From assembly GCA_002868905.1 (NCBI GenBank), contig PKUA01000075.1:1-39967 (forward strand): a DNA stretch of 39,967 bases, given 5' to 3'. Below the pieces are notes generated by a model. That model ran no database searches, had not been told where the DNA came from, and worked only from the letters and a program-made list of their open reading frames with translations. Made by a program: the position numbers and the translations under genes. This document shows positions 1 to 335 of the stretch, one piece after another. Numbering within the stretch: position 1 is the first letter of the stretch; each line of letters begins with the position of its first letter. The DNA comes from Desulfuromonas sp. (GTDB lineage: Bacteria; Desulfobacterota; Desulfuromonadia; Desulfuromonadales; Geothermobacteraceae).

Positions 1-180
1 CCCGGTCCACCCGACCGAGGGGTCGTGACAATTTGCACACGCCACCCAGTCCGGCGATGATATTTTGTCAAAAAAGATCTTTTTCCCCAGCTCTTGCATC
101 GGGGTCAGTGCCCCGGCAAAAACCTCCCCGGCAAAGAACAGGCCGACAAAGAGAGCTCCGCTCAGCTTTAGTCCACGCAT
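1..180 (-). CDS. Di-heme cytochrome c peroxidase / MauG-like protein, N-terminal part
   Basis: The first 60 residues of a secreted c-type cytochrome; the gene continues past the left edge. The start codon at 178-180 follows a strong Shine-Dalgarno, GGAGG, six bases upstream. Residues 1-23 form a signal peptide (MRGLKLSGALFVGLFFAGEV). Residues 31-36 (LGKKIF) and the first haem site CANCH at 48-52, followed by DPSVGW, are the usual opening of the cytochrome c peroxidase/MauG family, which reads LGK.LFFD then CxxCHDP. Family members are periplasmic di-haem proteins that reduce peroxide or oxidise protein residues; which this one does cannot be told from the fragment. It is preceded by a GEMM-type riboswitch with a terminator (221-335), so expression probably depends on a cyclic dinucleotide. 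Confidence 0.8.
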   Translation of the reverse strand, partial: MRGLKLSGALFVGLFFAGEVFAGALTPMQELGKKIFFDKISSPDWVACANCHDPSVGWTG

Positions 181-220
181 AACCACCTCCCGCCTACGCA
201 GTGCGTCGTTTGGACCGGCC

Positions 221-269
221 AAAGAAAATGGCCGGGTTGCCTTGGATTTCTCCTTCGGCAACTCGGCCA
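221..269 (-). terminator. Riboswitch expression-platform terminator
   Basis: On the minus strand TGGCCGAGTTGCC (269-257) pairs with GGCAACCCGGCCA (241-229), twelve of thirteen positions, around a 15-base loop, and is followed by TTTTCTTT (228-221). This is a good intrinsic terminator. Its 5' arm is the conserved 3' block of the GEMM aptamer, so aptamer and terminator cannot form together. That suggests a transcriptional ON switch, in which ligand binding spares the terminator from forming; this is inference from geometry. Confidence 0.75.
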
Positions 270-335
270 TCTTGTTTCAAGACCCGTAGCTTTCCGACCC
301 TGTCTTGCGGCAGGTTTGGCTTTATCGAGAGTGCT
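251..335 (-). promoter_or_regulatory. GEMM-I riboswitch aptamer (cyclic dinucleotide)
   Basis: Read on the minus strand, the 5' leader of the cytochrome gene carries the conserved GEMM-I elements in order: AAAGCCAAACC; a short hairpin CCTGCC-GCAA-GACAGG with a GNRA tetraloop; the core GTCGGAAAGCTACGGG (consensus GACGCAAAGCyACGG); a second hairpin TCTTG-AAA-CAAGA; and the 3' block GATGGCCGAGTTGCCG, which resembles the tetraloop-receptor end of the class. A P1 helix can form between CTC-TCG and CGA-AG-GAG. GEMM-I RNAs sense c-di-GMP, and a Geobacter subset senses cyclic AMP-GMP and often controls c-type cytochromes. Which ligand applies here is not decided by reading. The 3' part of the aptamer is also the 5' arm of the terminator at 221-269. 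Confidence 0.82.

What the first reader, a model, noticed from the sequence alone, without database searches (positions are those of the whole stretch)
221..335. GEMM-I riboswitch whose aptamer end doubles as a terminator arm, in front of a cytochrome c peroxidase gene
The minus-strand leader has the full set of GEMM-I blocks, and its conserved 3' block (269-257) pairs with 241-229 to make a terminator followed by TTTTCTTT. Aptamer and terminator are mutually exclusive, which predicts a ligand-dependent ON switch of a periplasmic haem protein. Geobacter GEMM RNAs are known to control c-type cytochromes, so this fits second-messenger control of electron transfer or peroxide handling.
Basis: partly seen in the sequence, partly recalled or inferred. 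Interest (0 to 1): 0.75.

Follow-up and report, generated by a model that had tools for sequence, protein, structure and literature searches.

The report
c-di-GMP-type ON riboswitch before MauG-like gene
The leader of a haem-enzyme gene carries a genuine cyclic-dinucleotide riboswitch whose sensing end is also half of a transcription stop signal, so ligand binding should turn the gene on; this is a well-made new example of a known kind of switch rather than a new kind.

Summary
Minus strand 329-253 is a GEMM-I aptamer (Rfam RF03167 73.9 bits, E=7.4e-16; RF01051 66.7 bits). Its 3' end (270-257) pairs with 241-228 to form a strong hairpin (-26.6 kcal/mol, z -6.3, 0 of 200 shuffles) followed by UUUUCUUU. 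The hairpin consumes the base of P3, the 3' strand of P1 and C258, the ligand-pairing C, so aptamer and terminator exclude each other: a predicted transcriptional ON switch, as in the published Geobacter metallireducens pilM riboswitch. Two corrections. (1) The specificity base (Vc2 G20, Geobacter A14) is G here, so c-di-GMP is the likelier ligand, although the genome also encodes GacA-like Hypr GGDEF candidates that could make cGAMP. (2) The gene is cut by the contig end after 60 codons; its relatives are closer to MauG/BthA (Tyr-ligated di-haem enzymes) than to classical cytochrome c peroxidase, so peroxide handling is unproven. New here: GEMM-I RNAs lie directly upstream of homologous MauG-like genes in 12 of about 98 loci from several phyla; 10 of 12 have the overlapping terminator, whose stem covaries, and 11 of 12 have G at the specificity base. 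It is a new member of a known kind.

The parts
253..329 (-). GEMM-I (c-di-GMP-I clan) riboswitch aptamer
   Evidence: RF03167 73.9 bits, E=7.4e-16; RF01051 66.7 bits
299..314 (-). P2 with a GCAA (GNRA) tetraloop
   Evidence: Rfam alignment; pairs listed
294..319 (-). Junction pairs C319-G294 and C318-G295 (Vc2 21-46 and 22-45); G21-C46 in most other GEMM copies of this genome, so the pair covaries
   Evidence: alignment A3
320..320 (-). Specificity base (Vc2 G20, Geobacter cGAMP riboswitch A14): G, the c-di-GMP-type state
   Evidence: residue roles from PMC9262584, PMC6274999, PMC7288161
293..293 (-). A equivalent to Vc2 A47 / Gs A41, the base stacked between the two ligand bases; the RF03167 consensus has G here
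   Evidence: alignment
258..258 (-). C equivalent to Vc2 C92 / Gs C75, the Watson-Crick partner of a ligand base; pairs with G240 in the terminator
257..270 (-). Shared segment: base of P3, J1/3 and 3' strand of P1 in the aptamer; 5' arm of the terminator
228..241 (-). 3' arm of the terminator
221..228 (-). U-rich tail UUUUCUUU of the intrinsic terminator
   Evidence: sequence
215..235 (-). Possible post-terminator hairpin CCGGCCA/UGGCCGG that captures the terminator 3' arm in read-through transcripts
   Evidence: sequence; adds about 9 kcal/mol to the aptamer fold; function inferred
1..180 (-). 5' end of a PF03150 di-haem enzyme gene (MauG/BthA-like): signal peptide and first CxxCH; cut off by the contig end

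Best explanation
A GEMM-I riboswitch acting as a transcriptional ON switch. As the leader is transcribed, P2 and P3 form first. If the cyclic dinucleotide (most likely c-di-GMP) is bound before about nucleotide 236 is made, P1 and C258 are held in the aptamer, the terminator 5' arm is unavailable, and RNA polymerase reads into the MauG-like di-haem gene. Without ligand, 270-257 pairs with 241-228 and transcription stops at UUUUCUUU. Shown here: aptamer match, terminator, their overlap, energetics, conservation and covariation. Inferred: ligand identity, direction of switching in cells, and what the enzyme does.
For: Rfam hits. Terminator -26.6 kcal/mol, z -6.3. Folding by transcript length: through nucleotide 241 the aptamer fold is within 3.7 kcal/mol of the best fold, but once 228-221 is made the terminator fold is 14-16 kcal/mol better than the ligand-free aptamer. 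Twelve GEMM-I leaders directly upstream of homologous genes, 10 with an overlapping terminator, found by the same rule that fails for most other GEMM copies in this genome. Across 13 overlapping terminators the ligand-pairing C is paired with G in all 13, and compensatory changes occur at several stem positions, G-C/A-U, C-G/U-A, C-G/G-C. The published pilM riboswitch works this way, with C75 sequestered in the terminator (PMC9262584). Specificity base G in 11 of 12 linked leaders. At least seven canonical GGDEF proteins in the genome could supply c-di-GMP.
Against: No binding, termination or expression data. The specificity base is a selectivity factor, not a hard filter (PMC9262584). GacA-like Hypr GGDEF candidates in the genome mean cGAMP may also be present. 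No sigma-70 promoter passed the consensus scan; only TTGACA at 378-373 with a weak TAACCT. The two Acidobacteriota leaders lack the terminator.
Confidence: 0.75

Rival explanations
1. The same ON switch, but sensing 3',3'-cGAMP (GEMM-Ib), as the cytochrome and pilus switches of Geobacter do.
For: Same platform architecture as pilM (PMC9262584); C21-G46 swap shared with the Geobacter cGAMP riboswitch (C15-G40, PMC6274999); genome encodes a receiver-GAF-GGDEF protein with the Hypr serine whose best solved relative is GacA 6d9m, E=1.5e-54; one linked leader, L042, has A at the specificity base.
Against: Window base 320 is G; the characterised Geobacter cGAMP riboswitch has A14 there; 11 of 12 linked leaders have G.
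Confidence: 0.2
2. A c-di-GMP-I-GGC variant RNA with some other or altered ligand, as the best-scoring Rfam family suggests.
For: RF03167 scores higher (73.9) than RF01051 (66.7).
Against: The RF03167 consensus has G at the A47 equivalent, whereas the window has A293, the standard base, with G20 and C92 equivalents also standard; the higher score therefore seems to come from the general sequence background. What the letters GGC stand for was not checked against the source paper, which is not in the library.
Confidence: 0.06
3. A constitutive attenuator: the terminator works but the aptamer no longer switches.
For: Ligand-free terminator fold is far more stable than the aptamer; P1 is short.
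Against: All junction residues and the tetraloop are kept, the score is the highest of the 16 GEMM copies in the genome, and the layout is conserved in other genomes.
Confidence: 0.05
4. A translational switch acting on the ribosome binding site.
For: The two Acidobacteriota leaders have no terminator and a short spacer to the Shine-Dalgarno.
Against: In the window the Shine-Dalgarno lies outside both alternative folds, 30 nt or more past the terminator.
Confidence: 0.03

Closest known systems
pilM riboswitch of Geobacter metallireducens (GEMM-Ib, cGAMP)
   Same: GEMM-I aptamer, terminator built from the aptamer 3' strand, ligand-pairing C sequestered in the terminator, mutually exclusive folds, ON switch (PMC9262584)
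   Different: Specificity base is A in the Geobacter cGAMP class, G here; controls pilus genes rather than a MauG-like enzyme
Geobacter sulfurreducens GEMM-Ib regulon (17 GEMM-I, 12 shown to bind cGAMP; PgcA, OmcAHG, OmcST)
   Same: Many GEMM copies per genome (16 here), c-type cytochrome targets, GacA-like cyclase present (PMC6456294, PMC8835794)
   Different: Here 11 of 16 copies have A and 5 have G at the specificity base; overlapping terminators occur only on G copies
Rfam RF03167 c-di-GMP-I-GGC
   Same: Best-scoring family, above its gathering score
   Different: A instead of the consensus G at the A47 position
MauG and BthA di-haem enzymes (PF03150)
   Same: Relatives of the controlled gene match MauG E=1e-36 and BthA E=3e-31 and keep the Tyr aligned with MauG Tyr294
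   Different: No mau operon and no conserved partner gene seen; function unknown; window copy truncated

Membership tests
GEMM-I / c-di-GMP-I riboswitch (RF01051 clan) | Covariance-model score above gathering threshold | tested here: met
   66.7 bits vs 35; RF03167 73.9 vs 59
GEMM-I / c-di-GMP-I riboswitch (RF01051 clan) | GNRA tetraloop on P2, conserved junction residues, ligand-pairing C | tested here: met
   GCAA loop; A322, A293, A292, G259, C258 present
GEMM-I / c-di-GMP-I riboswitch (RF01051 clan) | Binds a cyclic dinucleotide | not testable with these tools
   Needs in-line probing or ITC
GEMM-Ib (cGAMP-selective) | A at the Vc2-20 / Gs-14 position | tested here: not met
   G320; A14 in the Geobacter cGAMP structure. 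A selectivity factor, not an absolute filter
c-di-GMP-I-GGC (RF03167) | Score above gathering threshold | tested here: met
   73.9 vs 59
c-di-GMP-I-GGC (RF03167) | G at the A47-equivalent, as in the model consensus | tested here: not met
   A293 in the window (alignment); that this base defines the variant is inferred
Transcriptional ON riboswitch, pilM type | Terminator 5' arm lies in the aptamer and includes the ligand-pairing C | tested here: met
Transcriptional ON riboswitch, pilM type | Ligand lowers termination | not testable with these tools
   Needs single-round transcription
Canonical bacterial cytochrome c peroxidase | Closest to solved bCCPs, Met-His ligated haem | tested here: inconclusive
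   Window gene truncated; riboswitch-linked relative matches MauG/BthA much better than bCCP (1e-36, 3e-31 vs 4e-10) and has Tyr at the ligand position
MauG/BthA-like PF03150 enzymes | PF03150 domain, two CxxCH, Tyr at MauG Tyr294 | tested here: inconclusive
   Window fragment passes PF03150 (30.8 vs 25.6 bits) and has the first CxxCH; the rest is off the contig; seen in relatives

The most novel reading that the evidence does not exclude
A cross-phylum regulatory link in which c-di-GMP switches on periplasmic MauG/BthA-like di-haem enzymes, pointing to an unrecognised redox or protein-modifying step of the sessile or extracellular-electron-transfer lifestyle that is under direct second-messenger control.
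Probability: 0.3. Interest if true: 0.5.

Novelty: new member of a known kind. Interest (0 to 1): 0.33.

Why it matters
It adds a clean, testable ON riboswitch with a c-di-GMP-type pocket on the pilM-type platform, and shows that GEMM-I control of MauG-like di-haem enzymes recurs across Desulfobacterota, Acidobacteriota and a methanotroph. That is a lead to the role of a large enzyme group whose substrates are mostly unknown. No paper in the held open-access library linked such riboswitches with MauG or cytochrome c peroxidase, but subscription papers were not searched.

Tried and rejected
Whether the riboswitch marks one subclade of the enzyme (the FFDKIxxP, one-residue-shorter form in the window): rejected, 6 of 37 short-form and 6 of 54 long-form loci have a GEMM (Fisher p=0.54). 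Finding the rest of the truncated gene in the assembly: not found; only an unlinked paralogue on C68, without a GEMM within its roughly 280-nt upstream stretch. A conserved partner gene downstream of the riboswitch-linked enzymes: none seen in seven loci; three more regions fetched for this were not analysed. A first alignment was too diverse for the search for related loci. One search used a probe made of the 60 real residues plus 58 residues that I wrote from the family consensus; it served only to find loci, and no conclusion rests on its identities. Key riboswitch papers (Nelson 2015, Kellenberger 2015, Weinberg 2017) are not in the library.

Full report
Observation. Rfam places a single RNA family hit in the window: RF03167 (c-di-GMP-I-GGC) at 329-253 minus, 73.9 bits, E=7.4e-16, full length. 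The parent GEMM-I model RF01051 also passes, 66.7 bits. Its energy is -26.6 kcal/mol against -11.3 for shuffles (z -6.3, 0 of 200).

Mechanism. The shared segment 270-257 holds the base of P3, J1/3 with C258 (Vc2 C92, Gs C75) and the 3' strand of P1. Constrained folding by transcript length shows that the aptamer fold is within 3.7 kcal/mol of the best fold until about nucleotide 241 is made, loses by 8.6 at 236 and by 14-16 once the terminator is complete; ligand and tertiary contacts are not in these energies. Ligand must therefore act in a short window during transcription, as described for pilM, where the C75-G102 pair of the terminator outcompetes the ligand (PMC9262584). A later 7-bp hairpin (235-229 with 221-215) could hold the terminator 3' arm in read-through transcripts; it was not obvious by eye in the few other leaders inspected and may be incidental.

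Conservation. Homologues of the gene were gathered from order relatives and from 84,980 species genomes, about 98 distinct loci after removing five duplicates seen by matching contig lengths. Rfam and a covariance model built from the GEMM copies of this genome plus two homologous leaders found GEMM-I RNAs on the same strand within about 330 nt of the gene start in 12: the window, L037, L042, L131, L136 (same order), L105, L062, L065, L074 (other Desulfobacterota/Deltaproteobacteria), L055 and L052 (Acidobacteriota) and L122 (Methylobacter). Only one other strong hit fell elsewhere in these loci (L076). The model includes L001, L037 and L042, which match by construction; L037 and L042 also pass Rfam. 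A search for hairpins that start in the last 22 nt of the aptamer and end in a U-run found them in 10 of the 12, missing only the two Acidobacteriota; in the ten, 0 to 3 of 60 shuffles of the downstream sequence did as well. Across these ten and three further overlapping terminators of this genome, the ligand-pairing C is paired with G in 13 of 13, and several stem positions show compensatory changes. The aptamer arm is constrained by the aptamer itself, so covariation is informative mainly at the variable positions.

Ligand. Base 320, aligned with Vc2 G20 and with A14 of the Geobacter cGAMP riboswitch (numbering checked against the residue lists in PMC7288161 and PMC6274999), is G. Eleven of 12 linked leaders have G; L042 has A. 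This favours c-di-GMP, but the base is described as a selectivity factor rather than a hard filter (PMC9262584). The genome has canonical GGDEF proteins and two with Ser at the Hypr position (the position was taken from memory of the GHxxGD motif and fits the alignment with 6d9m). One of them has the receiver-GAF-GGDEF layout of GacA and matches GacA 6d9m best (E=1.5e-54). Both messengers are therefore plausible in this organism.

Target. The window is a whole contig, so the gene is cut after 60 codons. The fragment passes PF03150. A riboswitch-linked relative, L074, matches MauG at 1e-36 and BthA at 3e-31, classical peroxidases only at 4e-10 or weaker, and has Tyr at MauG Tyr294 (ligand roles in PMC6405878). 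All the linked relatives have two CxxCH; the FYN/FYD tyrosine is seen in all but L131, whose contig ends early. 'Cytochrome c peroxidase' is therefore the Pfam name rather than a demonstrated activity.

Verdict. A real, well-conserved GEMM-I ON riboswitch on the pilM-type platform, with a c-di-GMP-type pocket, in front of a MauG-like di-haem gene. The kind is known; the recurrent link with this enzyme group and the G-type pocket are the new details.

Noticed in passing
G000 GEMM loci L001-L016: In this genome overlapping terminators occur on 4 of 5 GEMM copies with G at the specificity base and on none of 11 with A in the pilM-type form. Many A copies instead have a separate downstream terminator containing UCUUCGG, complementary to the aptamer's CCGAAG(A), which would suit an OFF switch. 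Copies are related, so the correlation is not a clean statistic.
   Followed up: partly
L010, L013, L014 (G000:C17:11617-12550) and L004, L005 (G000:C56:3376-3719): A triple and a double tandem array of GEMM-I RNAs; the C56 pair precedes a protein that looks like an outer-membrane secretion component (by eye, not searched).
   Followed up: no
window 215-235: Perfect 7-bp hairpin CCGGCCA-UUUUCUU-UGGCCGG just past the terminator, able to lock the read-through state; apparently not conserved.
   Followed up: partly
L148 (G000:C13) and L147 (G000:C38): Two GGDEF proteins with the Hypr serine (GHxxGS); L148 has the GacA domain layout, suggesting that this organism makes cGAMP.
   Followed up: partly
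L012 (G000:C1:164-252): Another GEMM-I RNA whose target gene is lost at a contig end, 163 nt downstream.
   Followed up: no
L055 and L052: Acidobacteriota GEMM-I leaders before MauG-like genes without a terminator and with the start codon about 50 nt after the aptamer; possibly translational control.
   Followed up: no
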